Source: Portulaca oleracea
Taxonomy: Eukaryota > Streptophyta > Magnoliopsida > Caryophyllales > Portulacaceae
DNA: 64,000 nt
Assembly (NCBI GenBank): GCA_029582165.1
Contig: CM055872.1
Coordinates: 4,681,582 to 4,745,581, forward strand
Reading direction: 5' to 3'
A program made the translations under genes and the position numbers. Below the pieces are notes generated by a model. It made no database searches. It had not been told where the DNA came from and was given only the letters and a program-made list of their open reading frames with translations. How positions within the stretch are numbered: the first letter of the stretch is position 1; each line of letters starts with the position of its first letter. Of this stretch, positions 5,739 through 55,426 are shown one piece after another.

Positions 5739-7823
5739 ATGAAGAAGCATTTGCATTTTATTACAATTTCTGCAATTTTTCTCACTTTTTCTGTTCTATC
5801 TTCTGTTGTTTCTTCTTCTAATTTATTGTTTCAGGTGAGTACATATATATAGTTTTGTTCATGATGTATATATAAAACATGTCTCAAAACTTATGGCATG
5901 CATGTGCATTACATTACCATAACATAGCGTTTCTTTTTAGAGGATAATTGTTGATAGTGTTTATTATAGTAAAACATAGGTTTAGTCAATGAGTTCGTAT
6001 AAATTTGGATAAACTTCGTCTATAATTTGGATAGTTTGGATAGTTGAAAAAGAACTTTATTTTTGAACTTAGAGTATTACAGACTAAAGCAAAATGTCGC
6101 ATTAAAACTTCCTCTATTTCTTTTTTATGAAGTAGTAAAGAATGAATGATTTCTAAATCTTGAGTTAATTAGAACCAGTCTCTCTAAATTGTAAAATTTA
6201 AGAGTAAGACTGTCACGTATCGATATTTTACTTGAGTGGGATTTAGAAGTATTTGTTTAGTTTGATATTGTTTTAGTCAATCCCATGTAGTTGTTTATTG
6301 ATCATTTGCTAATTGTGTAGGGATTTAATTGGGAATCAAGTAATAAGGCAGGTGGATTGTATAATTCACTAAAAAATTCAGTTGATGATTTGGCAAGAGC
6401 TGGAGTAACTCATGTTTGGCTTCCTCCACCTACACACTCAGTTTCACCTCAAGGTATATATATATCCATGTTTGTGTTTAATTTTCTTGCAAATGCACAA
6501 GTGTAAAATTCACTCTATATGCCCTTTTAGATTATTTTCTTCAACAAAAAAGCTAGATTTCTACTATATAAATGTTAAAATATATATGTATATCTCATGG
6601 TAATTGTTGTTTCAGGGTATTTACCGGGAAGGCTGTATGATCTTGACGCATCTAAATATGGAAACGAAGTTGACTTGAAAAGCTTGATCAATGCCTTCCA
6701 CCAGAAAGGTATCAAATGTGTTGCGGATATAGTAATTAATCATAGATGTGCTGATAAAAAAGATGGAAGGGGGATATATTGCATTTTCGAAGGAGGGACT
6801 CCGGATGATCGTCTAGATTGGGGGCCATGGGCCATATGTCGTGACGATTATCAGTACTCTGATGGAAGTGGTAATCTTGATACTGGAGCTGGCTATGATG
6901 CAGCACCGGATATTGATCATCTTAATCCAAGGGTACAAAGGGAGTTGATAGATTGGATGAACTGGCTCAAAACTGAAATTGGGTTTGATGGTTGGAGATT
7001 TGATTTCGTTAAGGGATATTCCCCAAGTATAACTAAGATTTATTTGGAGCAAACGAAACCAAACTTTTCCGTTGGTGAGTTGTGGAATCCTATGTCGTAT
7101 GAGCAAGATGGAAAACCAAACTATAACCAAGATCAACATAGATATGATCTTCTTAGGTGGATTGAAACTGCTGGAGGAGGCGTCGCCTCTTTGTTTGATT
7201 TCACCACAAAAGGTATTCTACAAGCAGCTGTTGAAGGTGAGTTGTGGAGAATGAGGGATCCCAACAGTAAGCCAAGTGGGCTAATTGGGATCAAACCCCA
7301 AAACGCTGTCACTTTCGTTGATAATCATGATACTGGATCAACTCAAAAGCTTTGGCCTTTTCCTTCTGATAAAGTCATGCAAGGATATGCTTATATTCTA
7401 ACCCATTCTGGAACACCCTCAATAGTAAGCTTCTCATAATCTATTTCGTCATTTACTTGCTTGAGGTTCTTCCATTATCTTTCTTTTTTTGCATTTCTAC
7501 AAAATACCTTCCATCAATTATTATATATTTATATGATTAACACCAATTCAATCCTCTTTTTTCGACAGTTTTATGATCATTTCTTCGAATGGGGATTGAA
7601 GGAGGAGATTGTGAAGTTGACATCCATAAGAACAAGAAACGGGATAAACGAATCAAGTAATGTGAATATAATGGCCGCCGATGCTGACCTTTACGTGGCA
7701 ATGATCGATGGAAAGATTATCGTTAAAATTGGACCAAGATATGATCTTGGAAATCTTATTCCGACAAATTTTAAAGTCTCCACATCAGGAAAAGATTATT
7801 GCATATGGGAAAAGCAAGGTTGA
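5739..7823 (+). CDS. Alpha-amylase gene 1 (secreted, GH13), four exons
   Basis: Endo-hydrolysis of alpha-1,4 bonds of starch. Exons: 5739-5834, 6321-6453, 6616-7424 and 7569-7823; all introns are GT-AG and phases agree, giving 430 aa, normal for plant family-1 amylases. Residues 1-27 form a signal peptide ([18 protein letters not shown] core), so the enzyme should enter the secretory path. The mature part starts [16 protein letters not shown]. All four GH13 motifs are present: DIVINHR, GWRFDF (nucleophile Asp), VGELW (acid/base Glu) and FVDNHDTGS (transition-state Asp). The paired Trp of the cereal starch-surface site is replaced by IKPQN. Compared with its neighbour at 10957 it has THSGTP for THPGTP and GPRYD for GSRYD. 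A polyadenylation-like AATAAA lies at 7984-7989. Intron 1 holds a SINE/LINE-end-like repeat. Confidence 0.93.
6000..6275 (+). repeat. SINE/LINE-3'-end-like repeat in amylase intron 1
   Basis: Contains AACCAGTCTCTCTAAATTG and GAGTAAGACTGTCACGTATC, resembling the conserved 3' tail of common plant SINE/RTE-LINE repeats (CTCTCT... GGGTAAGACTGCGTAC). A diverged relative lies at 58415-58700. Boundaries are approximate. Confidence 0.5.
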
Positions 7824-10956: not shown

Positions 10957-12737
10957 ATGAAGCACTTGAACCTTGTTGCCCTCGGCGTAATTGTTGTCTT
11001 GTTCTTTACTTCTACTACCTCGGCGACTTCTAAGTTGTTGTTTCAGGTGAGTTTTTATAGCTGTTATTTGTATGAATTATTTGGACCGACGTATTTTTTT
11101 TGCGTGTATGCATAGTAAGTTTAAGTAAATAAGTTTAAACATTATGAAAGATAGCAATTTTTAGTATGAGACCGTCTTACGTAAGTCTATCATAAGACAT
11201 ACCTCCTGCAAAATGACATTTTTAATATTTTACCGTGAATGGTAAGTGAAATTTAGTTGAATTAGCTCCACAGTGTAACATTTTTTTTCCCTATTCAATC
11301 TCCCTCTAATTAACATCAATATAGGGATTCAATTGGGAGTCGAGCAACAAGGCGGGCGGGTTGTATAACTCGCTTAGAAATTCCATTGATGATTTAGCAA
11401 GAGCCGGAATAACTCACATATGGCTCCCTCCTCCAACACAATCGGTTTCACCTCAAGGTACATACATATACATGTATCATTCTTTAATTTTTGTTTTTAA
11501 TTTGATGCACAAGGTGAAGATAATAATCACATAGATGCGTGTTTTCTAAACTTGATTTCCAGGATATCTTCCGGGAAGATTGTATGATCTTGATTCCTCT
11601 AGATATGGAAATGAAGGTCAACTGAAGGACTTGATCAATGCCTTCCATCAAAAAGGAATCAAATGTGTCGCGGATATTGTCATAAATCATAGATGTGCTG
11701 ATAGGATGGATGGAAGAGGAATATATTGTATCTTTGAAGGGGGGACTTCAGATGACCGTCTTGATTGGGGTCCATGGGCCATCTGTCGTGATGACTATAA
11801 ATATTCTGATGGAAGTGGCAACCTTGATACTGGAGCTGGCTACGATGCTGCCCCAGATATTGATCATTTGAACCCAAGGGTACAAAGGGAATTGATCGAT
11901 TGGATGAATTGGCTTAAAACTGAAATCGGTTTTGATGGGTGGAGGTTTGATTTTGCTAAGGGATACTCTCCTAGCATTACTAAGATCTATTTGGAGCAAA
12001 CGAAGCCAGACTTTGCCGTAGGTGAATTGTGGAATTCCATTGCCTACGGTCAAGATGGAAAACCAAGCTATAACCAAGATTCTCATAGATATGAACTTCT
12101 TCAATGGGTTGAAAATGCCGGTGGGGGTGTAGCCTCTCTGTTTGATTTCACCACAAAAGGTATTCTACAAGCAGCTGTCGAAGGTGAATGGTGGAGGATG
12201 AGAGACTCTAACGGGAAGCCAAGTGGGTTGATTGGGATCAAGCCACAAAATGCTGTCACTTTTATAGATAATCATGACACCGGATCGACTCAGAAACTTT
12301 GGCCTTTTCCCTCTGACAAAGTCATGCAAGGATACGCGTACATTCTTACCCATCCAGGAACACCATCAATAGTAAGTTCTTCCCTTAAACTTTTTGGTGC
12401 TTGAAGCTACAAAGATTGTTGGAATCTTAATTACTATACATACATATATGTTTGAAACTCATTTATTACTCTTCTCTTGCAGTTTTATGATCATTTCTTT
12501 GAATGGGGATTGAAGGAGGAGATTGTGAAGTTGGCTTCTGTCAGAACAAGAAATGGGATAAATGAATCAAGTAACTTAAACATAATGGTATCAGATGCTG
12601 ACCTTTATCTTGCAATGATTGACGAGAAGATCATCATTAAACTTGGATCAAGATATGATATTGGCAATATTATTCCATCAAATTTCAAAGCCACCACATC
12701 AGGAAAAGATTACTGCATATGGGAGAAACAAGCCTAG
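10957..12737 (+). CDS. Alpha-amylase gene 2 (secreted, GH13), four exons
   Basis: Tandem paralogue of the gene at 5739, with the same product class and exon plan. Exons: 10957-11046, 11325-11457, 11563-12371 and 12483-12737. Exons 2, 3 and 4 have exactly the same lengths as in gene 1 (133, 809, 255 nt); total 428 aa. The signal peptide is about residues 1-23 ([20 protein letters not shown]). Catalytic motifs [23 protein letters not shown] and FIDNHDTGS are all present, so the enzyme should be active in hydrolysing starch outside the cell or in the endomembrane system. This copy keeps the family-typical THPGTP and GSRYD where gene 1 has changed. It ends in WEKQA then TAG. AATAAA at 12907-12912 is a likely polyadenylation signal. 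The gap from the gene 1 stop to this ATG is about 3.1 kb. Confidence 0.93.
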
Positions 12738-31567: not shown

Positions 31568-31853
<286 letters not shown>

Positions 31854-32211: not shown

Positions 32212-32298
32212 TTTTTTTTTGGACCACCAGAATCCAAAATGATAGTAGGGATTATTGCCATACAATTTGTGACAGTAGGGATTATTAGAATCCAATTT

Positions 32299-32360
<62 letters not shown>
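32212..32360. repeat. Second palindrome arm and (TA)n, no right arm
   Basis: The arm (GGACCACCAGAATCC, GTAGGGATTATTGCC) matches the arms at 31568-31853 and is followed by (TA)n at 32302-32360. The matching right arm is absent. Confidence 0.7.
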
Positions 32361-33384: not shown

Positions 33385-36300
33385 ATGGAAGATCTCTACA
33401 AATTGGCCTTGATTTCTGTGTTTTTCTGCTTGTTCTTGAGCTGGGCAGTTGAATTTTACAGGAATAATTTGTGGGTAAAGTGCAGAAAACAAAGGAAGAG
33501 GCTGAATAAACAGGGGATCAGAGGGCCTTCGCCGAGTTTTGTGTATGGGAATGTGCCTGAGATGCAGAGGATTCAATCCATGGTGGTGGTCAATACTTGT
33601 TCTTCTTCTTCATCCTCTAATGGAGAAATTGTGGGGCATGATTATACTTCTACGCTGTTTCCTTACTTTGAACAGTGGAGGAAAGAATATGGTACTTTTT
33701 TTTCTATCTCTCTGTTTTTGCTTTCTGTCAAAAATATGTTCTGACTCTGATACTTGGATTTGTCCGACCGAACTAAGCTGGACAATTCGGTCATGTTCCA
33801 AAGCGGGTTAGGTTCGAGTTTGGGGTAAGAAATTTAGACATCTGAATTTTGTGCCATATTCGAGTTCGGACGGTCTGCGAACCATGTTCGGATAAAATAT
33901 TGAAATTGTATCTATATTTAGAGTAAATTCGAGTTTGGGGATGTACGGACAAGTCTGAGCTTGAAATTTGATGTTTGTTAACCAGATAGGGTTGTCAAAT
34001 GTTCAGGTCGATGTTGGTTAGGGCAAATTGGATATTTGATGAAAAGTTTGATATTTAAGATTTGGATTTTTGGGCAATTTTTGGGTCAGATAAGTTTATA
34101 TTAGATTTGATCAATAGAAAAATGAAAGTTGTTACGTCCGGATTTTCAACCGAATCGATCAAAATAAAAATTTTGACAAAAAAAAATTATATTATATGCG
34201 ATTTCTTTTCAGATTGGACTAAACCCAAATTTTCAGGTTGGATTGTTCTCTGGCCGCCTTATTCTTCCCATGAGAAATTGCTTATGCAACGTATTTTTGT
34301 TTTATAATCACTAGGATAATATAGAATTATCAAAAGTTAAAAACCGTTGGCACCAACACAAGGTACACAATTAAACTCATACAAAATAAAGAATTATCAA
34401 AAGTTAAAACATGTTCTTTTATGCAGCTGGTTGGTTGCGATTACACAACACGCCATATTCTACCACAACTCATCACAATCTATCACAACCTATCACAATC
34501 TACTTTTTTAATTTTAATTTTAATTTATCCTTTTATAAAAATTAAACTTTTCCCAACCCACCACAGTTTTCATCAACCCACTACAACTTTTCTCGACCCA
34601 TCACAATCCACCACATTTCTTACTCATCACACCGCAATCAATTGCAACAACCTTATATAAAAAAAGACCTAAATATTAAAACACCGAAAATGTTATTCAT
34701 TTAAAAAATTCAATTAAACATGCCTGACTTTTTTTTTTTTTTTGTTGGTTAGCTCTCATGGTCATTTCAAAAATGTTTGTCCTATATGTCACGGAATTTT
34801 CCGAAATCATCCGGAATGTCCCGGAATATTCTAGAAGTATCCGGAATATTCTGCAGAATTCTAGAATTCTAGAATTCCTAGAGTTCTGCACTACTCATGA
34901 ATGTCCTAGAATATTCTAGAGTATTCTACACATGTATAGATTATTGGATACTTGTATAGATGGTTCAGAGGCACTGATATGGAGTTAGATCAAATCAATC
35001 TCCACCGTCCATTGAGGAGGTGGAAGTGTATAAATACCCTCTTGGGGTCTCATTTGTAACCATCCACCAATTGGAAGCAATACTCAAGAGCATTCTCCCA
35101 AACACACTCTTATCTCTTTTCTTATTCTTCAAAGCTTTCTTAGTCTCTTATAGTCTAAGTTAAACATGAAAGGCTTACTAGCAAACTTCCAATATAAAAT
35201 CGGGTTAAAGTTTGCTAGCATATGGCGTTGTACAAATTAAAGTCACCCCGTGACATTTGGTATCGAGCCTCGGTTTTAAGAAATTAGTGCGGGAGAAGTC
35301 ATGTCGAGTGTGGCCGAGCAAGGCTCCAAGAAGGGCAAAGGAACGAGGAGCATGGAGAACCCGGACATGTCACTCTTGAAAAGGGTGGCCGAGGTGGAGG
35401 ACACCATGTCCCACCTAGTGAAGGAAGTCGAGGCCTTAATGGGAAAGGCCGAGACACGGAGGAATTCGCTTCTAAGGATGAGATGAAGGAATTCCAGGAT
35501 GATGTGCAAAGCGCCTTTGATTCTCTCAAGGCGAGCTTGTTCATGGGGATGATGCTCTCAAAAGGAGATGAAGGATTCCAACAAAGCCCTTAGGAAGGAG
35601 TGGTGATTGCAAGTCAACAATCGAGTCTCTTTCCAACAAGATGGAAGAACTCGAGTTGCGATTGAAGACTTGCACGGCCTGTTGGTTAATGGTGGAGGCG
35701 CCGAGATTTCCGTCTCCAAGAAGGATATCACTCCTCCTCCCTTCTACAAGGGGTCGAGGAATGCACGAGTGATTGATGACTTCATTTGGAATGTGGAGTC
35801 ATACTTTGAGTCCAATGATGACATATTGACGAAAAGGAAGAAGGTAAACACCGCTTCGCTACTTCAAAGATGTTGCCTTGATATGGTGGCGCGCAGTGTG
35901 AAGATGCCACCATCGCACATCCGATCCCATCACTACTGGGATCAACTTAAGAGGGAGCTTAAGAGGCAATTCTATCCAGAGGATGCCGAATTTGAAGCTC
36001 GCACTAGGCTTCGACATCTCCAACACAAGGATGGGCGTATTCGAATACGTCGAGGAGTTCCAAGAACTCATGCTTTGGAGATCACCGGCATGAGTGCCAA
36101 GGACAAGTTGTTTATGTTCCTTGAAGGATTACAACCGTGGGCTAAGATGGAGTGGCGGCGAGGGTAAATGATATCAATTCGTGAATTGCGCTGCGACACT
36201 CTGCCCGAACGTGGCGAGAGTTCTCGAGGACCAAGCACGAGGCCAAGTAACAATGGAAAAGGTGGGAGATCGAGACAAGTCTCCCGAAGGATCGACCCTT

Positions 36301-39300
36301 CAAAAGCCACGACAAGGACAAGGGTAAAGGCAAAGGGATGACGCTCAGGAGGTACTCATGCTTCTTATGCAATGGGCCACATCGGGTTGCGATCGTCTAT
36401 GAGGGGAAAGATTGCCTCCTCGTAAGGGAAGAAGAAGCGAAGGAAAGGGAGAAGAAGATATCTTCTCTAAAATTCCTTAGCCCAAGCTAAGGTCGAGGAA
36501 GGATCCTGGGCGCATGCACGTGAGACACACATCAACGGCAAGCCCTCCAAGCATTGTTGGACACAGTGCGGATACGCCTATATGGCCAAGGAGCTTGGCG
36601 ATGAGGTGGGCCTTCCTACACCAAAACCAAGGGTTTTGTCAAGGGTGTAAATGCTGAAAAACTCCGATATATGGAGTTGCCAAGGACACACCCATTCACA
36701 TTGGGCAATGGGAAGGTAAGGCCGATATCACTGTCGCTCCCTTAGATGACAAGAAGTTCTACTTGGGAATTGATTTCTTTGTCAAGGCGAAGGCCTTCCC
36801 CATCCCCTTCGCCAACATTATGTGCATCATGGAGGAAAAACAACCGTGTGTCGTCCCGGTAAGGACGGACATTGATGAGGGAAGGATGTTATCCGCCCTT
36901 CAACTTTCTAAGGGAGTGAAGAAGAAGGAGCCTACCTACTTAGCCACTCTTAAGATGGAAGAGGGTAACAAAAAGGAAGCTCAAGTACCCAAGGCCATCC
37001 AAGAGATACTTGACGAGTTCAAGGACATCATGCCCGCAGAGTTGCCCAAGAAACTTCCCCCAAGAAGGGAAATAGATCACGAGATCGAGTTGGAGCCGGG
37101 GGCCAAACCACCCGCGTTTGCTCTCTACCGAATGGCACCACCAGAGTTGGAGGAACTAAGGAGACAACTCAAGGAATTGTTGGATGCCGGGTACATCCGC
37201 CCTTCAAAGTCTCCTTATGGTGCGCCGGTCCTATTCCAAAAGAAGCACGATGGGTCACTTCGGCTATGCATCGATTATAGAGCACTAAACAAGGTAACCA
37301 TCAAGAATAAGTACCCCATTCCTCGTATTGATGATTTGTTCGATCAACTTGGAGGAGCAAGGTATTTCACCAAACTTGATTTAAGGAGTGGGTACTACCA
37401 GGTTCGCATAGCCGAAGGAGACGAGGCGAAGACGGCATGCGTGACCCGCTATGGATCCTATGAGTTCCTAGTCATGCCGTTTGGGCTCACAAATGCCCCA
37501 GCCACATTTTGTACCCTCATGAACAAGGTACTTGCTCCATTCCTTGATCACTTTGTGGTGGTTTATCTCGATGACATTGTCATATATAGCAAGACTATGG
37601 AAGATCATGTGGGGCATTTGAGGCAAGTGTTCAAGACACTTCGGGAGAATGAGCTCTATGTGAAGAAGGAGAAGTGTTCCTTTGCCCAAGAAGAAGTACC
37701 ATTCTTGGGCCATATTGTGGGAAAAGGCAAGTTACGCATGGATCCGGGCAAGATCAAAGCGATCCTTGATTGGGAGCCACCAACCAAGGTCACTGAGCTA
37801 AGATCATTCCTAGGCTTGGTGAATTATTACCGGCGTTTCATCGAGGGATATTCCGCTATTGCCGCTCCTCTCACCGACTTGCTCAAGAAGGGAAGAGGAT
37901 GGGCTTGGAGCGAAGAATGTCATCAAGCCTTCGAAATTTTGAAGAAGGCTGTCACGGAAGAACCTGTTCTAGCACTTCCCAATCTTGGCAAGCCATTCGA
38001 GCTACACACCGATGCTTCCGACTTCGCCATTGGCGGAGTACTAATGCAAGAGGGTCATCCCATCGCCTACGAGAGTCGGAAGCTCAATGACACCGAAAGG
38101 CGGTATACGGTACAGGAGAAGGAGATGACCGCAGTGGTGCATTGCCTTCGAACTTGGAGACATTACTTGCTCGGGAGTAAGTTCATTATCAAGACAGACA
38201 ACATTGCAACAAGCTACTTCCAAACCCAAAAGAAACTAACTCCCAAGCAAGCTCGATGGCAAGACTTCTTAGCGGAGTTTGATTATATAATGGAGTATAA
38301 GCCGGGTCGTGCTAACTTGGTAGCGGATGCTCTAAGTCGCAAAGGAGAGCTTGTCGACATTAGCCAACCTCAAAGCAACCTACGTGATCGAATCAAGGAA
38401 GGATTGGAGCATGATTCCTTTGCGAAGACCATCTCCAACCTAATCAAGGATGGCAAGACAAGGAGATTCTGGGTTGAAGATGGGTTGATTCTTACTAAGG
38501 GTAGGCGAGTCTATGTTCCTTCATATGGTGGCCTCAGAAGGGAAATCTTAAAGGGATGTCACAACAGCAAGTGGGCCGGGCATCCAGGTACGCACCGAAC
38601 ACTAGCATTGATAGGCGATTCCTACTATTGGCCTCAGTTGAAGAACGATGTCGAGACATATGTCAGAACTTGTCTTGTATGCCAACAAGACAAGCTTGAG
38701 CAAGGGGTACCTGCGGGACTCCTCCATCCACTTCCCATTCCTGAGAGACCGTGGGAAAGCATTTCCATGGACTTCATCGTGGGGTTACCCACGAGTGAAG
38801 GATATAATTGGATCCTTGTGGTGGTGGACCGATACTCGAAGTATGCCACCTTTATTCCCGCCCCAAGGAATGCATCAGCAAGTCGCCCAACTCTTTTCAA
38901 GCATGTTGTGAAGTATTGGGGCTTGCCTCGCTCGATCGTGAGTGATCGAGACACTCGCTTTATCGGACATTTTGGGCGGAGTTGTTCAAGCTCATGGGTT
39001 CCGAGCTTAACTTCTCCACCAGCTTTCATCCTCAAAGTGATGGACAAACCGAGAGGGTGAACGCACTTTTGGAATTGTACCTTCGGCATTTCGTGAGTGC
39101 CAACCAAAGGGATTGGGCAAAGTTGCGACGAGCCCAATTTTCCTACAACTTGCGTAAGAGCGAGTCCGGGCCAAAGTCCATTCGAGATTGTCACAGGACA
39201 ACAACCGTTGACACCAAGCACTATTGCTACGGGCTATAAAGGTCCAAGCCCACCCGCATTTCAGTTTGCCAAGCATTGGAATGACCAACTTGGGGTGGCG

Positions 39301-42300
39301 CGAGCTTACTTAGAAAAGGCTTCCGAGAAGATGAAGAAATGGGCTGATAAGAAGAGGCGCCCAAGGGAATTTCAAGTTGGTGACCTCGTGCTTGTTAAGC
39401 TCTACAACCACGCGAGGTTAGAAGGGCGACATCGGGGCCTACTTCGAAGATACGAAGGACCGTTTCCCATTATCAAAAAGGTCGGAGCACAGGCTTATAA
39501 GGTGGAGTTGCCTCCCAGGATCAAGTATCATCCTGTCTTCCATGTGAGCTTACTTAAACCTTACCACGGAGACCAAGATGATCCAAGTAGAGGCATATCT
39601 CAACGGGCACCAATGGGTATCAAGGTCCAACATGATAAGCAAGCAGAGACGATTCTTGCCAACCGAATGGTGCGCCAACCAGGTCTACCTCCGAGCAGGG
39701 AGTTACTTGTCAAGTGGAAGGGTCTTCCTAATAGCGAATCAAGCTGGGAGCCTATCCAAAACTTATGGCAATTCAAGAAGCAGATCCAAGCATATGAGGA
39801 CTTGAAGGCAACGAGGACGTCGCCGGATTAGGTGGGGGAGAATGTCACGGAATTTTCCGGAATCATCCGGAATGTCCCGGAATATTCTATAAGTATCCGG
39901 AATATTTCGTATCTTTCTTGAGGTCTCTAGAATTCTCTAGAATTCCCTAGAATTCCCTAGAGTTCTCTAGACTACTCATGAATGTCCTAGAATATTCTAG
40001 AGTATTCTACACATGTATAAATTATTGGATACTTGTATAGATGGTTCTAGAGGCACAATATGGACCGTTAGATCAAATCAATCTTCACCGTCCATTGAGA
40101 AGGTGGAAGTGTATAAATACCCCCTTGGGGTCTCATTTGTAACCATCCACCAATTGGAAGCAATACTCAAGAGCATTCTCCCAAACACACTCTTATCTCT
40201 CTTCTTATTCTTCAAAGCTTTCTTAGTCTCTTATAGTCTAAGTTAAGCTTGTGAAAGGCTTACTAGCAAACTTCCAATATAAAATCGGGTTAAAGTTTGC
40301 TAGCGCCGCACGGGCGTTGTACAAATTAAAGTCACCCCGTGACATATAGATGCCTCAATAAGTTTGTATTTTGTTGATTTTGGTTGATTGGAGATTTCTC
40401 TTTCCTCTCTCATAATGTATTATTGGAGGGTATATGCTATATGTCTCTTAGCATGTTACTATGTGAAGTGAATTTGTGTAGACCTAGACATGTATGGTAG
40501 TCTCATGGCATCTTCCATCTAATTAACTTTCAAGGAAAAGTGCCTAGGCCCTAGGTTGGACCTTAGGCATCTAACATTTTACGAGTAACTCCGTTCTATA
40601 TTAATTGTCCGTTAATATTACTGGTTTTTATATGTATATAATGTTCTAGTATATGAAAATATTATCACTAAATTCATTATGAAAAATATTATCATAAAAA
40701 TATAATATTATAATTTTTTGATAAAATATGATGTGAGGAATTCTTAATTAAAGAAAGACATTTAGATGATTAATATAAAATGGAGGGAGTATCTCATAAG
40801 TGTAGAATTCTTGGAATTATAATGGTTTGGATCAAATCTTATTCTTTTGTTTTGCTGATCGTAATGATATTGAGGAACTATAGAGTAGAAGTCTAAGAAG
40901 TGGTTTGTTTGGTTCAATTTATTTTAAATTAAAATATAATTTTAATTTTATTAGTACTACTGAAATATAAAAATAAAGTAAAAATTATTAGAATATAATT
41001 ATACAAAGTAGAAATTATAAGAATTCAATTTCCCTTTTTTTCCAAAGCGGATATTGCCCACCTTTTAGGACCTTAAATTATGTCAACAAATTTTTTTTCC
41101 CTTTAATGCTCTTTTCTCACTCATTGCTTTTCAATTGTGATTTTATTTTGCCATTATTGGAAGATTTTTCAGCATAGAAAGAGATAAATTTAATGTCAAT
41201 ATTACTTTTAACATCATTACATATTATTTTTCTTAAATTTTAATTTCTAAACTCTGTTATTTATTGGTCCTTAGTTATTACCAAGACTTTTCTCAATCTA
41301 AAATAGATATATATTTTTTACTTTACTAACTTTTATGATTATTAAAATAAAGTGTGATAAGTTCTGCTTTATATCTTCAATATATTTTATAAAAAAATAT
41401 ACTCGTTCTATAAAAGATTTTGTGATTCAACCCTCCTAAAAACATTAAGATAAAAGTCATGCTATTAAAAGATTAATATATTTAATATAATGCATTGAGA
41501 TATCGTTATCTTGAAATATGTGTTTAAATAATTATAGTCACTCTAATAATTATACTTCCATGAAATGTATATTCCGTGGATCAATTATCAATAAACTGAA
41601 AAAAGAAAATAGTACTACAAACATATAAACATACAAAATTTCCTCTCTTAATTCAGCAACTTATCAATCACTAGCCGCCATATAGTGAGGATCCACATAT
41701 AATGTCACCTATCACCAATAATTCAATAAATCAAAATCCACGTGTCAAGCTCATAGTGAGCTTGGTTAAATTTTAAGATCAATTTATTGATTTTTATGTG
41801 AAATGATTTTGTAAAACAAGAATTATCAAAATTATTTTTAATAGTGTACAAATACAAATGTGGGTAATAATTAATTATTAAGACTAATGTGAGCAAATCA
41901 ATACCTAACCATACCCTGTAATATAGTGAGGATCCTAAAAACTTTTGCTGAAGTAAACTATCAACAATTATCCTTGAATCGTTTTAGATTGTTGTTTTAG
42001 GTCGTGTTCTTTAGATTGATAACTCTTTCAAATCCAATCAAATTCAATCCAATCAAATCCAAACCTTACACAATTTCCCAAAAAAAAACCTCTCTGAAAA
42101 CATAATTCCCCAAAAAAGCATCCAATTCAATCCAATCCATCCAAACCTCATTTTATCCAATTCAAAAAACAGAGCCTTAGTTTAGAATATAGAGGTTTTG
42201 ATTTTGAAGTCTTAGCATAAACTGCTTTAGATTATGCGAAGTTTGGAGAGTTTACGAAATTTTTAATAGAGTTTATATTTTCAGATAATATCTACAATTA

Positions 42301-48300: not shown

Positions 48301-50708
48301 CCCAAATTGTTTGTCCATCTACCTAACTCCTTTGTCCCAAAATGTTTGTCAATTTTATAATTCCAATGATTGTAATTCCTATTATACCCCTAATAAATAT
48401 TCTTTTGTTTCTTTTTTATTTTTCTTCACTTAAGAAAAATAAGGACAATTCTGGTACATTACACATTTTTCACCCCATTTCCCATGACCATTGGACTTTT
48501 AAATATAGTTGGATGGACAAACAATATGGGACGGAGGTAGTACCTTTTTATTTAATATATTTCCACAAAATACACAAAATTATTTAAAACCCAAAAATTA
48601 TTTAAATTCCACAAAATATAAAAGAACAGATTAATTATTCTGCTTTTATATGTTAAAATTTTGTCCGACTCGAATGCATGAATTTGTTTGACTTGGAAAG
48701 GTTGGGTTTGATTACAAATTTTTCATCCGGATTTAGGTCCCATTCTTTTATAAGGTTGGCTGCGGTGTGGTGAAAATTTGAAAGTTGTGGTGGGCTGAGG
48801 AAAGTTTTGGTGGAATGTGGAAAGTTATGGTGGATTGTGGAATATTGTGTGTAAATAATTGTGAGTGGATTGGTAGATTGTGGTGGAATATGAAAAGTTG
48901 TGATGCGATGTAAAATCGCAACCAACCAGTTGCATAAAAGAACTAGGGTTGACAAAAATTTGTCCTACCCAGAAGAAACTGGGTAGGGTCATAGAATTTT
49001 TGTATGAATGTTGACATTGATCGATTTGACTGTAAATTCAAACACAATTTTTTTCAAATTTATATTGTCTGGACCCGATTTGGACCTCAATTTAGGCTCC
49101 GTTCTTTTATGCGGTGCGGTGAAATTTGAAAAAGTGTGGTGAAGTGTGGTGGGTTGTGGTGGAATTGTGGTAGGTGGAGTATGTGAGGCGAGATAATGTA
49201 AATAGTAGAGGAGAAAAGTGAGGAGAGAGAAAAGTAAGAAAGATATTTTGGTAATGATTGTGGTTAAGTGTGGTGGTAGTGTGGTGGAGTGTGGTGAAGT
49301 GTGGTAGAATATTGAGTATTGCGGTGTTGTGCGATACCGCGACGCAAGTTACCACTTAAAAGAACGGGGCCTTATTATTGCCCGACCCAAGTCCGACCCG
49401 AAAATACAACTGGGTATCGTACATCAAATTTTTGTTCGGTGTTCGATTTGTCCAAACTCAGAATTTCCAAGGACCTGAATTTTTGCCAGCTCTAATTTTA
49501 ATATTGACTAATTTGACTGAATATTTGGATATGATATTTCTTTTTCTCCTTATTGTTTGAACTAGTTAAACCGATTCTGACCCAAGTATAAGTCCGACTG
49601 AATTGTCCGACGTAGTCTAGCCAAAAAAAAAAGGATATCAAACAATTTTTTTGTCTCAATTTTGACATTGATAACTAGACCGACCTACATTTGACTTGAA
49701 CCCGAAATTTTGCAAGTACTAATGGCATCTAAAGGACTTGGTTAATATGGGAAATAAGCGTCTTGTTGACACTTATCAGTTATCAACGATCTTGTCATTA
49801 TTTAGGTCAAGGTGGAAGTTTGTTTTGATTTAACCAAGGTGTAAAAAATGAAAACACTAGTAACACTATTGTACTTAGCATTTATAGTACCACTGATGTC
49901 ATTTCAACTAAACCAAGAAGTAAATGCTAAGTTTAATCAATCAATTCAACTTTGATATATATTTATACTTAAGGCCCCGTTCTTTTATGCGTTAACGCAC
50001 CCAAACGCAACACAACTTACCGCAACCCTACCGCAACATAACGCAAATTACCATTACTTTTTAACTATTTCAAACGCAACGCAAACGCAACGCACAAAAG
50101 AATGGAGCCTTAGAATTCTGTGTTCATGTGCATGAAAAAAATCAAATGTAACTGTGTAAACAACTTTATTGGTAGGGACATATTAATTTGTTCATAGAAA
50201 AAGCTCATCGTTGATGGGACTATCCAAATGCATATGAATCTCATACTATACATGGACTAAATGTTTGATCTAATGCACATAGGTGACAATGGTGATTCAA
50301 GAGACCCTAAGATTGTACCCACCAGCTGCCTTCATATCAAGGGAAGCCCTAGGAGAGTTCCAAATTGGGAACATAGTCGTGCCCAAAGGAGTATGCATAT
50401 GGACCCTGATCCCCACTTTACATCGGGACCCCGACATCTGGGGTCCCGATGCTAATGAGTTCAAGCCAGAGAGGTTCGCCAATGGGGTCTCCAACGCGAC
50501 CAAAGTCCCGCAAGCCTATGTGCCCTTTGGACTTGGCGCGCGGCTCTGCTTAGGGAAGAACTTCGCCATGGTGGAATTGAAGCTCTTGCTTTGCCTCATT
50601 GTCTCCAAGTTTAGCTTCACTCTATCCCCTAGTTACAAGCATTCTCCTGCGTATAGAATGATTGTTGAGCCTGGACATGGTGTATATATTGTTATTAAGA
50701 AAGTGTGA
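33385..50708 (+). CDS. Cytochrome P450, CYP714-like, five exons
   Basis: Exons: 33385-33691, 45628-45854, 46446-46696, 47771-48152 and 50283-50708; GT-AG and in phase throughout, 530 aa. An ER-anchored haem monooxygenase. Residues about 7-22 form the membrane anchor ([17 protein letters not shown]); [20 protein letters not shown] is the proline-rich hinge of the CYP714 type. Later motifs: [21 protein letters not shown]-helix AGHEST, ExxR as QETLR at the start of exon 5, PERF, and haem loop [10 protein letters not shown] with the Cys ligand. CYP714 members are known to modify gibberellins; the substrate here is inference from family and only the similarity is seen. Intron 1 is 11.9 kb and contains a chromovirus and MITEs; introns 3 and 4 also carry MITEs. 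No stop or frameshift interrupts the exons. Confidence 0.9.
34408..34669. mobile_element. Tourist-like MITE (GTGGTG family) in P450 intron 1
   Basis: CATGTTCTTTTATGCAGC at the left and ATATAAAAAAAGACC at the right; TAA on both sides. The body has CCACAACTCATCACAATC. Confidence 0.6.
34787..35255 (+). repeat. Chromovirus 5' LTR
   Basis: 469 bp; contains TATA (GTATAAATACCC at about 35028-35039) and a run of GAATTCTAGAATTC-like palindromic words. A gap relative to the 3' LTR lies near the end (GCTAGCATATGG versus GCTAGCGCCGCACGG). Confidence 0.92.
35258..35269 (+). other. Chromovirus primer-binding site
   Basis: TGGTATCGAGCC two bases after the LTR, a one-base-deleted version of the initiator Met tRNA primer site. 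Confidence 0.7.
35301..36480 (+). pseudogene. Chromovirus gag, broken
   Basis: Coding survives in pieces. 35301-35486 is the N-terminal charged/coiled segment ([14 protein letters not shown]...). 35607-36167 contains the capsid domain ([20 protein letters not shown], later [20 protein letters not shown]). A remnant zinc knuckle, [10 protein letters not shown], appears near 36360 but lacks the last Cys. The pieces lie in different frames with stops between, for example around 35487 and 36160, so no full gag can be made. Confidence 0.8.
36480..39831 (+). pseudogene. Chromovirus pol (PR-RT-RH-IN-chromodomain), frameshifted
   Basis: The longest open stretch, 36763-39060, opens at a TTG and is only part of pol. 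The protease region before it is shifted near its active-site Asp (about 36555). RT spans roughly residues 110-290 with YLDD at 268-271. RNase H follows ([13 protein letters not shown], later ADALSRK). The integrase has its HHCC zinc region ([15 protein letters not shown]) and the first two catalytic Asp ([18 protein letters not shown]). A frameshift near 38980 moves the remainder ([17 protein letters not shown], with the Glu) to another frame, and a second shift near 39170 leads to the C-terminal frame. This ends in a chromodomain ([19 protein letters not shown], about 39700-39765) that can direct insertion to modified chromatin. Confidence 0.9.
39831..39842 (+). other. Chromovirus polypurine tract
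   Basis: GGTGGGGGAGAA directly before the 3' LTR; primes plus-strand synthesis. It starts one base after the TAG that ends the C-terminal frame. Confidence 0.8.
39843..40344 (+). repeat. Chromovirus 3' LTR
   Basis: 502 bp, same ends as the 5' LTR, longer by extra AGAATTCCCT units and a GCCGCACGGGC segment. Confidence 0.92.
40588..40789. mobile_element. Stowaway MITE in P450 intron 1
   Basis: Left ACTCCGTTCTATATTAATTG, right ATTAATATAAAATGGAGGGAG; TA on both sides (40586-40587, 40790-40791). Confidence 0.8.
40792..41999. other. P450 intron 1, AT-rich, nothing recognised
   Basis: No coding frame or repeat boundary seen. Confidence 0.35.
42000..42176. mobile_element. Tourist-like MITE (TCCAATCC family), complete
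   Basis: 177 bp; starts GGTCGTGTTCTTTAGATTG and ends TCAAAAAACAGAGCC; TTA target duplication (41997-41999, 42177-42179). The body carries CAATCCAATCAAATCC and ACACAATTTCCCAAAAAA. Confidence 0.78.
42730..43230. repeat. CCCGAC/GTCGGG-rich patch
   Basis: Repeated words such as GTGACCCGACTCGAC, GGTCGGGCCAGG and GACCCGGCTCGACCCG, sharply richer in GC than the surrounding intron. Similar patches occur elsewhere in the window (see findings). Confidence 0.5.
43690..44015. mobile_element. Long-arm inverted-repeat element in P450 intron 1
   Basis: The left arm (TATACTGAATTTTTAGGG, GTATTGGACAATAATACA, GGATAATAATGCACCCGG) pairs with the right arm (CCGGGTGCATTATTGTCCAA, TTCAGTGTATTATTATTCAA). The centre is CCTATGTGG...CCACGTAGG. 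Related to 28005-28430. Confidence 0.7.
44016..45627. other. End of P450 intron 1
   Basis: Mostly AT-rich. 44720-44900 has GGTAAGGCAAGGTAAGGCAAGG repeats and may be another small MITE ending ACAGGGCC. The acceptor is TGTATAG before 45628. Confidence 0.35.
45895..46114. mobile_element. MITE in P450 intron 2
   Basis: 220 bp; starts GGGAGCGTTTGGTAAGAG and ends CCGAACAAACACACTC; TTA duplication (45892-45894, 46115-46117). Same type as 26121-26344. Confidence 0.75.
46763..46908. repeat. Inverted repeat in P450 intron 3
   Basis: TTGTACTATGATAGGATTTC and GGTGACTTGGTGGAAAGCT on the left pair with AGCTTTCTACCGAGTCACC and GAAGTCCCATCACAATACAA on the right. A small foldback element. Confidence 0.75.
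47137..47430. mobile_element. Tourist-like MITE (TCCAATCC family) in P450 intron 3
   Basis: Starts GACCCTGTTATTTGGATTG and ends CCAAAGAACAGAGC; TAT on both flanks. The internal block with CCAATCCAATTCAATCC and CCTTACACAATTCCC is duplicated. Confidence 0.7.
48197..48630. mobile_element. Tourist-like MITE in P450 intron 4, host of a Stowaway
   Basis: Starts GGCCCTCTTCTTCCACGCGG and ends ATATAAAAGAACAGA; TTA duplication (48194-48196, 48631-48633). The body has ACCACAATTTACAACAACTT. Interrupted by the Stowaway at 48291-48540. Confidence 0.7.
48291..48540. mobile_element. Nested Stowaway MITE
   Basis: 250 bp; CTACCTCCGTCCCAAATTG and CAATATGGGACGGAGGTAG ends; TA flanks. It contains a second internal CCTTTGTCCCAAAATGTTTG. 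Confidence 0.88.
48736..48948. mobile_element. Tourist-like MITE (GTGGTG family) in P450 intron 4
   Basis: Starts GGTCCCATTCTTTTATAAGG, ends GCATAAAAGAACTAGGG; flanks TTA/TTG. Confidence 0.7.
49095..49371. mobile_element. Tourist-like MITE (GTGGTG family), complete
   Basis: 277 bp; GGCTCCGTTCTTTTATGCGG and CTTAAAAGAACGGGGCC; perfect TTA duplication (49092-49094, 49372-49374). The best-preserved copy in the window. Confidence 0.87.
49973..50109. mobile_element. Short Tourist-like MITE in P450 intron 4
   Basis: 137 bp; GGCCCCGTTCTTTTATGCG and CGCACAAAAGAATGGAGCC. The body is rich in AACGCAACGCA, a variant of the CACCACAA body. Confidence 0.75.
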
Positions 50709-51056
50709 ATTAGAGTTCGTGTATAAACATCTCAATAAGACTAATATAAAGACTGCTTTTACATGAAAAAAGAAATTCATAATTTAAAGTGTTAGATGTT
50801 TAGTTTTGTGGTAACTTATTTTATACGTGATGCTAATCTCCAAGTTATTTTATACGTGTTAAATGTTTAATTTTCGCATGATGCTACTAGCGGTAGCTTT
50901 TATCTTGACAATGTATTTTTAGTGGTTATTTTTTAATTTTTGCATTGATTATATTTTCAATGATATTTTAGTGACAGTTAGGATTCATTTTTTCTAAAAT
51001 TATATTCCCCTTTTTTTTTTAGAGGAATGCCTTGATATCAGACATAATATATGTTA

Positions 51057-51509
51057 CTCCGTCGGTTTGTTTTTAGGCTCTGTTCTTTTCTGCGGTATTT
51101 TGTGGTATGGTGTGGTGGAATTGTGGTAGGTTATTGGTATGTGGGATAGGTGAGGAGAGAAAATGTAAAAAGTAGAGGACAAAAGTGAGGAGAGAGAAAA
51201 GTAATGATTTGTGGTAAAGTGTGGTGAGTTGTGCCAAACTGTGGTATGCTGTGGTACCGCAGTTTGCCAACTACAGAAAAGAACAAGGCCTTAATTGTCG
51301 CCTTATTTTTTGTGCCGTCAACTTTGGCCGCTAATTTTTTGATTTATATAATGATCTATCGTACAAAATTGATATCGTTATATTTGTACTAAAAAATACT
51401 TTTACGAAAATATAAAATTAATTTTTTTGATAAAATATTACATGAAAAGTTATTGAAGAAAAATGAACCTTAGAAAGCGTGAAAGTCAATTATTTAAAAA
51501 TGAAGGGAG
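51057..51509. mobile_element. Stowaway MITE split by a Tourist-like MITE
   Basis: Left CTCCGTCGGTTTG, right AAAAATGAAGGGAG; TA flanks (51055-51056, 51510-51511). Interrupted at 51076-51290. Confidence 0.75.
51076..51290. mobile_element. Tourist-like MITE nested in a Stowaway
   Basis: 215 bp; GGCTCTGTTCTTTTCTGCGG and CTACAGAAAAGAACAAGGCC; perfect TTA duplication (51073-51075, 51291-51293). Confidence 0.85.
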
Positions 51510-51536
51510 TATCTACCAACTATTTGATATTTATAA

Positions 51537-51765
51537 GGCCATGCTTTGCTATTCATTGAGGGATTACGAATCTTTATTGCCCATGTAGCAGTCCGCCGCA
51601 CTTTACCGCAATCCACCGCAACTCACTGCACATTACCATTTATCTTTTTATCATTATCATTATATTTCAGCACCTATTTATTATTTCCACCGCAATTTAC
51701 CGCAATCCACCGCAACTCACCGCAATTTACCGCACCGCAAATTCACCGTATAAAAGAACGGTACC
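51537..51765. mobile_element. Tourist-like MITE (CCGCAA body)
   Basis: Starts GGCCATGCTTTGCTATTC after TAA and ends CGTATAAAAGAACGGTACC. The body has repeated CCACCGCAACTCACCGCA. Confidence 0.6.
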
Positions 51766-52224
51766 CAGTATTGAATTGACCATGTCCTATAAACCGTTAA
51801 TAATAAGGACTTGTACAGTTGGATGGGAAATGGGTGAAGGTAAAAATTTGTAAATAATCAACAGTTAAAATATATGCAAATTGACACTCATTTAGTGACG
51901 AAGTGATTAGGACTAATTGAATGACCATTTCCAATTTTCCATCAAGTGAAAAATGTGAAAATAAACGGGAAATTGGAATCTAATAAACCGACCTTTGATG
52001 GTCCTTTGAAATAACGAACCAACCTTGCAAGCTAATTTACAACGAACACATCTTAACATGTTAATTTTTCTAACGAACCTCCGGCGAGTCCCACAGGCCG
52101 GAAAGCAAAGTTGGCGGTGGTAGAAGCTGACTTGGAATATTTTTGAGCAAAAAAAAATGAAAAATAAATTTAGGCATGTGCTGAATTATTTTTTTTCCAA
52201 ATCACTATTTCCCTTTATTTATTT

Positions 52225-52701
52225 TTATTGTACATCACCCATCTTTATGAACTCCCCTTTTCTTTCTCTCTCTCTCACTCTCTGTGTCTTTCTCTTTCTA
52301 ACACCCCGACCCATCCCCCACCCCCAACCTCTCACTCTCTCTCTCAACCACCCCCATGGGAATCGGCGGAGGCGAGCAGCAAACATGCCGGAGGAATCGG
52401 CGGCGGCCTCGCGGCGGAGGGAGGACTTGATGTTGTTGATGCGATCGGAAAGAGAAATCTGCTCATCGCGAAGAGCAGCGGTGTCCTCTTGGAGGTCATG
52501 GATGCGGTATTTCTGACCTAAAGAACGGACACTGAGGAGGAGAATACCAGTCATGGCGAAGAACTGGATGTAGCTGTGCTTCTGCTTCATGGCGTTCCTG
52601 AAGAAACTTATTTTTCTCTTTGACTTTGCAGTATCTGCTCCCATAGCGGTGGTGGAGGTGGAGGTAGAGGAGGAGGAGGAGCTTGGCATTGGAGTCGCCA
52701 T
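52225..52701 (-). CDS. Chimeric ORF: captured membrane-protein fragment fused to MULE terminal repeat
   Basis: From the ATG at 52701 the frame starts MATPMPSSSSSSTSTS and continues KSKRKISFFRNAMKQKHSYI, then a hydrophobic segment QFFAMTGILLLSVRSLG (about residues 49-65, one membrane span) and a charged helical part (HDLQEDTAALRDEQISLSDR). This matches a small conserved plant transmembrane protein of unknown function, as I recall it. Family similarity ends after FAARLRR; from 52356 leftwards the frame is encoded by the terminal inverted repeat (FPWGWLRERVRGWGWG...), so the natural C-terminus is replaced. The whole frame is 158 codons plus a stop. Whether it is transcribed or translated is unknown; the MULE arm would have to supply promoter or terminator. 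It could equally be an inert captured fragment. Confidence 0.6.
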   Translation of the reverse strand: MATPMPSSSSSSTSTSTTAMGADTAKSKRKISFFRNAMKQKHSYIQFFAMTGILLLSVRSLGQKYRIHDLQEDTAALRDEQISLSDRINNIKSSLRREAAADSSGMFAARLRRFPWGWLRERVRGWGWGMGRGVRKRKTQRVRERERKGEFIKMGDVQ

Positions 52702-52739
52702 TGTTGAGGGTTTCTCGAAGCTCAGACTTAGCAATTTCC

Positions 52740-52977
52740 TTCGATCAATTGGGAATTTATGATGTGCTCTAATTTTGATGAATTTTCAGAAATTTCGATC
52801 CTTTTTTGTTTGTCGGAGCGAGCGGCCCAAGGGAATCGGACAGACAGAAAGCGGTAGCGGTTTTTTTTTTCCCTTTGTTTTTTTAGTTGAGACAGAAAGT
52901 TTCGTTTGTTTGAGGTCTGTTAGATTGTTTGAAGTGGAGGTTGTGGCGGAGATGGCTGGCAGTGGAGGTGGTGGTGG
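52740..52977. other. Captured non-coding part inside the Pack-MULE
   Basis: Upstream of the captured ATG. On the plus strand it ends with an ATG at 52952 opening a short glycine-rich frame (MAGSG then a glycine run, stop at 52990). This may be the start of a second captured gene, or the leader of the first. A TTTTCAG acceptor-like site lies near 52783-52789 (plus strand). Confidence 0.35.
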
Positions 52978-53503
52978 TGGGGGTGGTTGAGAGAGAGAGT
53001 GAGAGGTTGGGGGTGGGGGATGGGTCAGGGTGTTAGAAAGAGAGAGACACAGAGAGTGAGAGAAAGAGAAAGAAAAGGGGAGTTAATAGAGATGGGTGAT
53101 GTACAATAAAAATAAATAAAGGGAAATAGTGATTTAGCAAAAAAATAATTTAGCACATGCCTAAATTTATTTTTCATTTTTTTTTTTGCTCAAAAATATT
53201 CCAAGTCAGCTTCTACCACCGCCAACTCAGCTTTCCGGCCTGTGGGACTCGCCGGAGGTTCGTTAGAAAAATTAACATGGTAAGGTGGGTTCGTTGTAAA
53301 TTAGCTTGTAAGGTTGGTTCGTTATTTTAAAAGACATCAAAGATCAGTTTATTAGATTCCAATTTCCCAAAATAAACATACAAAAGATGTATTAATAGGG
53401 GCTAAAGAGGATAAGGTATAAAAGGGAGACACCCTCACAACCAACCAGTTGATTTCCCCAGAAACCAACTTCTAAACAGTGTAAGAGTTTCAAATGAGCA
53501 TCA

Positions 53504-55426
53504 ATGGCGGTCGCGATCGGATCATCAACAAGGGTCGTGCTTCCCATACTCAGAATAACGAGCAACAATGCAGGAGAGAGAAAGAAATCTCCGTCAGTCT
53601 TCATCTCCTCCAATCCATCCGCCATTAACATCTCCTCTCTGAGCTCCCTCTACCGCGCGTGCAACCACTCGCCCCACCGCTTCCCCTCCGCCGCCGAAAT
53701 CGACGCCATTGACGCCGGCAAGCTCGCCGTCGCAGTCTCCCACAGCGCCGTTGTGGTCTCCGTCTTCTCCAAGGTCGATGGCGGCGATGATGGGCGGAAT
53801 GAGGGTTTGTTTGGGAGGATATTTCCGGCGCCAGCCACCGGAAATGGCGATTTGGTGGGGTTTGGACGGGCAGTCTCCGATCTAGGGTTGACGGCTTCGA
53901 TTCATGACGTCATGGTCAGTCTCTTAATACCGACTTTTTTTCTAAATGGGATTGTCGATTGATTGTTTGTTTGTTGCTTGTATTTTGTGGATTCTACCTA
54001 AGATAGTTGATTATGGAATCCAGCAGACTTTTCGTGGAGATTTAGCTTATTTGATTGAATTATTGATTGGTTGTCTTGTCTTTATGGTTAAACTTAGATT
54101 CAGTGTGGAAGATTGTTGATTATGGAATACATTTATTTGTCTTGAAGATTTAGCTTATTTGAAAGGATTATTGATTGTCTCTGCAATTAAACTGGGATTT
54201 TGAAGTGTAGGATCAAGATGAAATTTGAAAATTAGGGGTTGGAACTTGGAACTTGGAAGATGGCTGTTGGTAGTGTTAACATTTGTCATTGTAAGCAAAG
54301 CTGACAAAGTTTTGTCATAACCTGAATACTCGAATTTGTCCGGCCTGGAAAAAGTTGGATTGGGTCATAATTTTTCGTTTCAAATTTTAGTATTAACTGA
54401 AAATTCGGACACGATATTTCTCATATTTCTACTGTCCAAACCGATAATGGCCCGAATTCACATTTGTGGGGGAATTGTCCGACCCAAAAGAACCGGGTAA
54501 TGGTCATCAACTGTTTTGTCCAAATTTTTGACACTGACCGACCCAAATTTGACCTAGACCCGAATACATCATTCTTTTTTATCGATAGGTTGTTGCTCGG
54601 AGAGAAATTTAGGACAGTTTGCACTTTGTAGCCCTTGTTGATCCCCAGGTTTATTTGTAACTGTATGGAACTAAAGTTGACATGAAGTCTCTTTTGTGTG
54701 GTTCCTATTTTGCTATTTGCAATCCATAGTTTTTTGTAATCTTGCTTCTGAATGGCATCAATGACGATTCCCGCTGTTCGGTTATGTACTAAAAGCAACA
54801 TTTTCAGTAAATTTTCAGGTCATTCCCACTTTGCGACGTATGGGAATTGGTCGGATGATAATTCAGCGTCTCATAAGGTCGGTTTGTACTCCAGTTTTGT
54901 TCTATCTTTGGCTAAAGACTACTCTACTGATGCATTGTTAACAGTTCTGAGAAAGTTGTGTGCCTACTTTCAGAATGCTGTATAACAAAGACATTTACGA
55001 CATTTCAGCACTATGTTCTGAGAAGGAGAGGTAAGTGCACACATTTTGATTATCCTACATATAAGATATGAACGAGAGGTCTACACGGACTAGTTTCTCC
55101 ATGAACTTTAGTTCATGGGTAGACTGCCTACATATGGATCCCCAGACCGTGCTTAAACGTGTTTTTTTTGGGAGTTTGTTGTTTCTGTTGTTGTATAAGA
55201 CATGAACAAGGAAGCTCAATTTCTGATGGCTCAAGTTACGTCTCTGTTGACAAAACATACCAGATTGTTCTTCGGAGCTTGTGGATTTGGGGATGACATG
55301 TTGGGATCAACTACGATGATGTATGCTAGAGAAGCTTCCGACAACTTGAATGACGCCAAGATAATTACACGGGCTGGACGGAAACTGCTGATAGCACCAC
55401 CTCTGAGACCACCCTTGTTGTCTTAA
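53504..55426 (+). CDS. GNAT-family N-acetyltransferase (plastid NSI/GNAT-like), four exons
   Basis: Exons 53504-53914, 54819-54877, 54974-55030 and 55264-55426, in phase, 229 aa. Transfers acetyl from acetyl-CoA to amine groups of protein or small substrates. The N-terminal 60 residues are Ser/Arg-rich with few acids (RVVLPILRITSNNAGERKKS), like a plastid transit peptide. The GNAT core starts LVGFGRAVSDLGLTASIHDV. Exon 2 supplies the acetyl-CoA loop VIPTLRRMGIGRM (R-R-x-G-I-G). Exon 3 is YNKDIYDISALCSEKER and exon 4 starts LFFGACGFGDDMLGSTTMMY. The order and sequence resemble plant plastid GNAT1/2/3 proteins. The C-terminus runs about 30 residues past that block (ITRAGRKLLIAPPLRPPLLS). An upstream ATG at 53494 is out of frame, so 53504 was taken. 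The Pack-MULE ends 135 bp upstream and could affect the promoter. Confidence 0.87.
54318..54570. repeat. CCCGAA/CGGAC-rich repeat in GNAT intron 1
   Basis: Contains GAATTTGTCCGGCCTGG, AATTCGGACACGATATTTC and CCGACCCAAATTTGACC; similar to patches at 48655-49090, 49376-49720 and 56880-57190. Confidence 0.5.

What the first reader, a model, noticed from the sequence alone, without database searches (positions are those of the whole stretch)
51967..53368. Complete Pack-MULE with host gene cargo
Seen: inverted repeats of about 390 bp with perfect ends, a perfect 9-bp duplication AAAATAAAC, no transposase, and a 621-bp centre encoding the start of a conserved plant membrane protein. Known: Mutator-like elements make 9-bp duplications, and Pack-MULEs carry gene fragments. 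The high arm identity suggests recent movement, 135 bp upstream of an intact acetyltransferase start codon.
Basis: partly seen in the sequence, partly recalled or inferred. Interest (0 to 1): 0.78.

Follow-up and report, generated by a model that had tools for sequence, protein, structure and literature searches.

The report
Plant jumping gene carrying host gene
A 1.4-kb plant transposon has picked up almost all of a small host gene and carried it to a new place; this is a well-documented example of a known kind, with no sign that the carried copy is under selection.

Summary
Confirmed. Window 51967-53368 is a non-autonomous Mutator-like element (Pack-MULE): arms of 390 and 391 bp (371 of 392 columns identical), perfect 9-bp target duplication, no transposase found. 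The same genome (1.13 Gb) holds two more Pack-MULEs with the same cargo and their own perfect duplications; two parent loci without arms nearby; a 9.6-kb relative with SWIM and partial MULE-transposase matches; and an empty site in the duplicated target locus.

Corrections: the cargo is not just a gene start but about 113 of 120 codons of a single-exon gene plus about 210 bp of 5' flank; the last 57-66 bp of the "centre" are element sequence; arm identity does not date the insertion (the left arm is closer to the sister elements' arms than to its own partner).

Since the three cargo copies split, their changes fit no constraint (10 protein-changing, 6 silent outside the serine run; 11.2 expected), and a conserved C-terminal tail is missing, so a working protein is unlikely. 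The joins suggest microhomology-guided template switching, perhaps in two rounds; the source of the second fragment was not found. A new, unusually complete member of a known kind.

The parts
51958..51966 (.). left copy of 9-bp target site duplication AAAATAAAC
   Evidence: one copy, AAAATAAGC, in the empty duplicated site
51967..52356 (+). left arm (terminal inverted repeat), 390 bp, begins GGGAAATTGGAATCT
   Evidence: family copies
52359..52373 (-). junction filler GGAATCGGCGGAGGC, near-copy of 52393-52407 inside the cargo (overlaps the start of the parent match)
   Evidence: (family D5)
52365..52911 (-). host-derived cargo: most of a single-exon gene and its 5' flank
52225..52701 (-). chimeric open frame, 158 codons plus stop: host start codon at 52701-52699, host-derived residues, then 44 codons (stop included) read from the left arm
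52702..52911 (-). captured 5' flank (leader and possibly promoter) of the parent gene
   Evidence: alignment with the C12 and C3 parent loci; promoter function not tested
52912..52920 (.). GAGGTCTGT, short similarity between host (GAGGTTTGT) and element (GGAGGTTGT) at the right join
52912..52977 (+). element subterminal sequence (57-66 bp, depending on where the join is put), next to the arm in other family members
52978..53368 (-). right arm (terminal inverted repeat), 391 bp
53369..53377 (.). right copy of target site duplication AAAATAAAC
53504..53959 (+). open frame at the start of the downstream GNAT-type acetyltransferase gene (neighbour, not part of the element; exact exon end not determined)
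   Evidence: (Acetyltransf_1 31.5 bits, cut-off 20.7, on a hand-joined set of exon pieces); the single pieces gave no match

Best explanation
A Pack-MULE. A non-autonomous Mutator-like element took up, probably by microhomology-guided template switching during DNA repair or replication, about 550 bp of a single-exon host gene (5' flank, start codon and about 113 of 120 codons) between its arms. It was then mobilised, presumably by transposase of a related autonomous element such as the 9.6-kb one on C5, and inserted 135 bp upstream of an acetyltransferase gene with a 9-bp duplication. Shown: element structure, parent loci, two sister copies, a separate duplication for each, empty site. Inferred: which transposase moved it, the template-switching mechanism, and that the copy now has little or no protein function.
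For: Arms and 9-bp duplication. Three elements with the same cargo and same left join, three different perfect duplications. Two parent loci without arms in the 9-kb stretches read. Empty site in C25:25510700-25511700. Relative L045, C5:2223034-2232604, with SWIM (36.2 bits, cut-off 19.6) and part of the MULE transposase domain (25.2 bits, cut-off 27.6), perfect duplication. Other members carry pieces of tetraspanin and enolase genes and ubiquitin. Left filler matches 16 nt of cargo with one mismatch (1 of 2000 shuffles reached 15 or more); the E2/E3 second join repeats 24 nt of the cargo start region with one mismatch; right join GAGGTYTGT.
Against: The MULE transposase match is below its curated cut-off, covers 38 of 99 profile positions and lies in separate frames, so an intact autonomous partner is not proven. 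The left filler can also be read as a diverged continuation of the parent (17 nt with 3 mismatches to the C3 copy, by eye). Neither parent is an exact donor: silent-site distance cargo to parent is about 0.14, more than between the two parents, 0.108, so the donor may be an older or lost copy. No transcript, small-RNA or methylation data could be examined.
Confidence: 0.96

Rival explanations
1. A functional, mobilised gene copy: the element carries a nearly complete gene with its own 5' flank, the arm supplies the stop codon, and the copies are expressed and kept as protein genes.
For: Start codon and open frame kept in 3 of 3 copies; in E2 and E3 the arm supplies GGG-stop straight after the cargo and filler; about 210 bp of parental 5' flank is included.
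Against: Changes since the copies split, outside the serine run: 10 protein-changing, 6 silent, neutral expectation 11.2 (s.d. 1.9), and all three frames would stay open with probability 0.75 without selection; with part of the serine run counted, 12 and 6 against 12.8 expected, and 0.72. The C-terminal motif F[AV][AS]RLR..F, in 102 of 120 homologues tested, is absent from the three frames. E1 lost an 11-bp unit and now reads into the arm. With so few changes weak constraint cannot be excluded.
Confidence: 0.06
2. Capture by aberrant excision of two neighbouring elements that flanked the host gene (hybrid-element model), not by template switching.
For: Described for Pack-CACTA elements in plants (PMC13317346, section on transduplication read).
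Against: No arm match in the 9-kb stretches around either parent locus; joins show copied filler and short similarity.
Confidence: 0.12
3. Not a transposon insertion but a local inverted duplication around a resident gene fragment.
For: Long inverted repeats alone would fit.
Against: Same boundaries at many loci, different 9-bp duplications, empty site.
Confidence: 0.01

Closest known systems
Pack-MULEs and MULE-derived genes of rice relatives (PMC4858842, passages read)
   Different: Cargo here covers about 113 of 120 codons of a single-exon gene plus its 5' flank; transcription and methylation not examined
PM-ZIBP Pack-MULE family of tomato (PMC3310237, passages read)
   Same: A Pack-MULE that multiplied after uptake; long arms and 9-11 bp duplication as stated there for MULEs
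   Different: 13 of its 14 copies have tandem arms; here single arms, and two of three copies carry a second fragment of unknown source
Pack-TIR elements of animals, gap-filling and FoSTeST models (PMC8277862, passages read)
   Same: Microhomology and template switching at cargo joins
   Different: Other hosts and element types; here inferred from the joins of three copies only

Membership tests
Pack-MULE | Long terminal inverted repeats (typically 100-500 bp) | tested here: met
   390/391 bp, 371 of 392 columns identical; range as given in PMC3310237
Pack-MULE | 9-11 bp target site duplication | tested here: met
   9 of 9 bp; 11 of 19 family members perfect 9-10 bp at exact ends; one target copy in the empty site
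Pack-MULE | No transposase in the element | tested here: met
   Three frames of 90 codons or more overlap the element; no Pfam match in any
Pack-MULE | Internal sequence from a host gene with a parent elsewhere | tested here: met
   C12 and C3 loci
Pack-MULE | Has moved as a unit | tested here: met
   Three copies with different duplications; empty site
Pack-MULE | Related autonomous MULE with MURA-type transposase | tested here: inconclusive
   L045: SWIM above cut-off, MULE domain 25.2 bits against cut-off 27.6, separate frames
Pack-MULE | Transcription of the cargo (reported for some, not required) | not testable with these tools
   No RNA data

The most novel reading that the evidence does not exclude
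The E1/E2/E3 series is a fossil record of how MULEs take up unlinked genes: one shared first uptake with filler copied from the cargo itself, then a second uptake in the E2/E3 lineage that jumped back to recopy 24 nt around the start codon and then jumped to another template; uptake would be serial, replicative template switching that can move nearly whole small genes with their 5' flank.
Probability: 0.4. Interest if true: 0.5.

Novelty: new member of a known kind. Interest (0 to 1): 0.35.

Why it matters
It is an unusually complete case: parent loci, three copies from what looks like one uptake, a candidate autonomous relative and an empty site, all in one genome. The joins bear on the open question of how these elements take up unlinked genes. 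It also warns that a nearly full-length open frame with its own 5' flank can be evolving without visible constraint, which matters for gene annotation.

Tried and rejected
Dating by arm identity: rejected. In E1 and E2 the left arm is closer to some arm of another element than to its own partner; in E3 the own partner is the closest arm to the left arm (0.025), but that partner is closer still to the right arm of E2 (0.019). Selection on the cargo frame: tested, none seen. An element end in the left flank (TTCCAATTTTCC at 51929-51940): rejected, it is ancestral flank present in the empty site. The left-flank search 50700-51957 gave, besides itself, mainly a high-copy repeat (40 of 6639 candidates scored). 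Source of the E2/E3 second fragment: only E2 and E3 themselves match; the tool warns that no match does not prove absence. Species name: not established; the three best named cargo homologues are from Spinacia, Saponaria and Chenopodium, which I recall as Caryophyllales. No paper in the library holds both 'Pack-MULEs' and 'Caryophyllales' (one search). Two literature searches on whole-gene capture and sequential uptake gave nothing closer. A search of solved structures with the cargo frame gave only matches with E above 0.2.

Full report
Observation. The inverted repeats lie at 51967-52356 and 52978-53368; 371 of 392 columns agree, with 13 transitions, 5 transversions and 3 gap columns. AAAATAAAC stands directly outside both ends. 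The three frames of 90 codons or more that overlap the element match no Pfam family. The window is C5:4681582-4745581 of a 1.13-Gb genome in 63 contigs; its nearest cargo homologues are plant proteins.

Parent and sister copies. Searching the genome with the 621-bp centre gave 43 matches (40 of 130 candidates scored). Five are long: E1 itself; C12:34630448-34630936 (94%); C3:47763121-47763576 (96%); C3:5902606-5903214 (86%); C5:8578867-8579316 (95%). The other 38 cover only the last 66 bp or less. Searching with the left arm gave 40 matches, 40 of 1412 candidates scored, so the count is a lower bound. Two of the five long matches lie between arms: E2 (C3:47762434-47763985) and E3 (C5:8578457-8579988). 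The C12 and C3:5.9-Mb loci have no arm match in the 9-kb stretches read and are duplicates of each other over most of that length. They are read as the host gene and its duplicate.

Cargo. The host gene is a single open frame of 121 (C12) or 120 (C3) codons ending ..FAARLRLLFGDDE or ..FAARLRLVFGDDE. It belongs to a plant family without a Pfam match to the cargo frame; 187 proteins were found at E up to 0.001, 120 listed, many of those with a name given as 'hypothetical' or 'uncharacterized'. The elements hold the stretch from about 210 bp upstream of the start codon to about codon 113. E2 and E3 end ..LASADS(C/R)GGG with a stop supplied by the arm. E1 lacks one 11-bp unit, changes frame and reads 44 codons (stop included) of the arm, 158 codons in all. 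The motif F[AV][AS]RLR..F is in 102 of 120 homologues tested and, by eye, in none of the three element frames.

Right side. Positions 52912-52977 are element sequence: they stand next to the arm in many other members. The join shares GAGGT-TGT between host and element. E2 and E3 lack this piece and carry instead about 270 bp that match only E2 and E3 in the genome, joined after a 24-nt repeat (one mismatch) of the region round the start codon 123 bp away. All three share the left join, so one uptake followed by a second change in the E2/E3 line is the simplest reading; E2 and E3 are also the closest pair (0.032 over their length, against 0.039-0.040 to E1). The left filler matches 16 nt of cargo with one mismatch; 1 of 2000 shuffles reached 15 or more (single-base shuffles). 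It can also be read as a diverged continuation of the parent, 17 nt with 3 mismatches to the C3 copy, by eye.

Mobility. Of 19 elements with two arm matches in the fetched stretches, 11 have a perfect 9- or 10-bp duplication at exact ends; the other 8 have imperfect, shorter or shifted ones. L051, L057, L060 and L061 were left out because no second arm match of 140 bp or more lay in the stretch. The acetyltransferase gene has a duplicate at C25:25509956-25510989, 90%; there the target occurs once (AAAATAAGC) and the flanks run on without the element. Non-coding flank distance is 0.12 over 162 sites, against 0.039-0.040 between E1 and E2 or E3 over left arm plus cargo. So E1 landed after the duplication, unless C25 lost the element exactly, and the copies split later than the duplication. 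With a recalled rate of 7e-9 per site and year these distances would be roughly 9 and 3 million years; this is only a guide.

Arms do not date the move: L1-R1 0.048, L1-R2 0.026, L1-R3 0.030, L2-R2 0.032, L3-R3 0.025, R2-R3 0.019; in the tree of 18 arms the six E arms form no supported groups. Of 43 changes from the majority in those six arms, 27 are C to T or G to A, 2 the reverse and 14 transversions, as expected if the copies were methylated (inferred).

Selection. Outside the serine run the two host copies differ by 8 silent and 2 protein-changing changes, unlikely without constraint (0.0016); with the serine run the count is 8 and 4 (0.010). The 4 fixed differences between elements and parents are all silent (0.008). 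Since the three element copies split, 10 changes alter the protein and 6 do not outside the serine run; 11.2 (s.d. 1.9) are expected without constraint, and three open frames would survive with probability 0.75 (12 and 6, 12.8 and 0.72 with part of the run). The gene was constrained as a host gene; its element copies are not visibly so, though the numbers are small.

Family. L045 (9571 bp, perfect duplication) has a SWIM match above and a partial MULE transposase match just below the curated cut-offs; L044 is a shortened relative (94-95% over the shared ends, 85% in the middle). Other members carry a tetraspanin piece (L046, 48.9 bits) and an enolase piece (L056, 79.1 bits) (2 such in the 9 frames of other members and 1 of E2 given), and a ubiquitin piece (L043, 143.5 bits). 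The family has taken up host genes more than once.

Literature. Pack-MULEs with one or more parents and intact frames are well known (PMC4858842, passages read), as are multiplied families (PMC3310237, passages read). A 2026 review says that a way by which DNA elements take up unlinked genes may still be undiscovered (PMC13317346, passages and the section on transduplication read); template switching is supported for animal elements (PMC8277862, passages read). This is a new, unusually complete member of a known kind.

Noticed in passing
window 31630-31652 and 32279-32301: Two places end in a motif very like the arm tip (21 of 23 bp), beside TA-repeat stretches; probably ends of another, shorter element family.
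   Followed up: partly
window 51071-51296: A repeat of about 220 bp with at least 39 other copies at 88-94% in the genome lies left of the element.
   Followed up: no
window 35607-39831: Gag, reverse transcriptase, RNase H, integrase and chromodomain matches of a Ty3/gypsy-type retrotransposon in several frames.
   Followed up: no
window 6597-7439 and 11580-12404: Two stretches that match the same part of the alpha-amylase catalytic domain profile, possibly a tandem gene duplication.
   Followed up: no
L040:3830-4102 and the matching part of L042: About 270 bp in the sister elements E2 and E3 with no other match found in the genome; source unknown.
   Followed up: yes
L043 (C1:43339581-43347059): A 7.5-kb relative with a perfect 9-bp duplication, a ubiquitin piece near one arm, and two similar inner stretches that may belong to a nested element.
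   Followed up: partly
L046, L056: Related elements carrying pieces of tetraspanin and enolase genes.
   Followed up: partly
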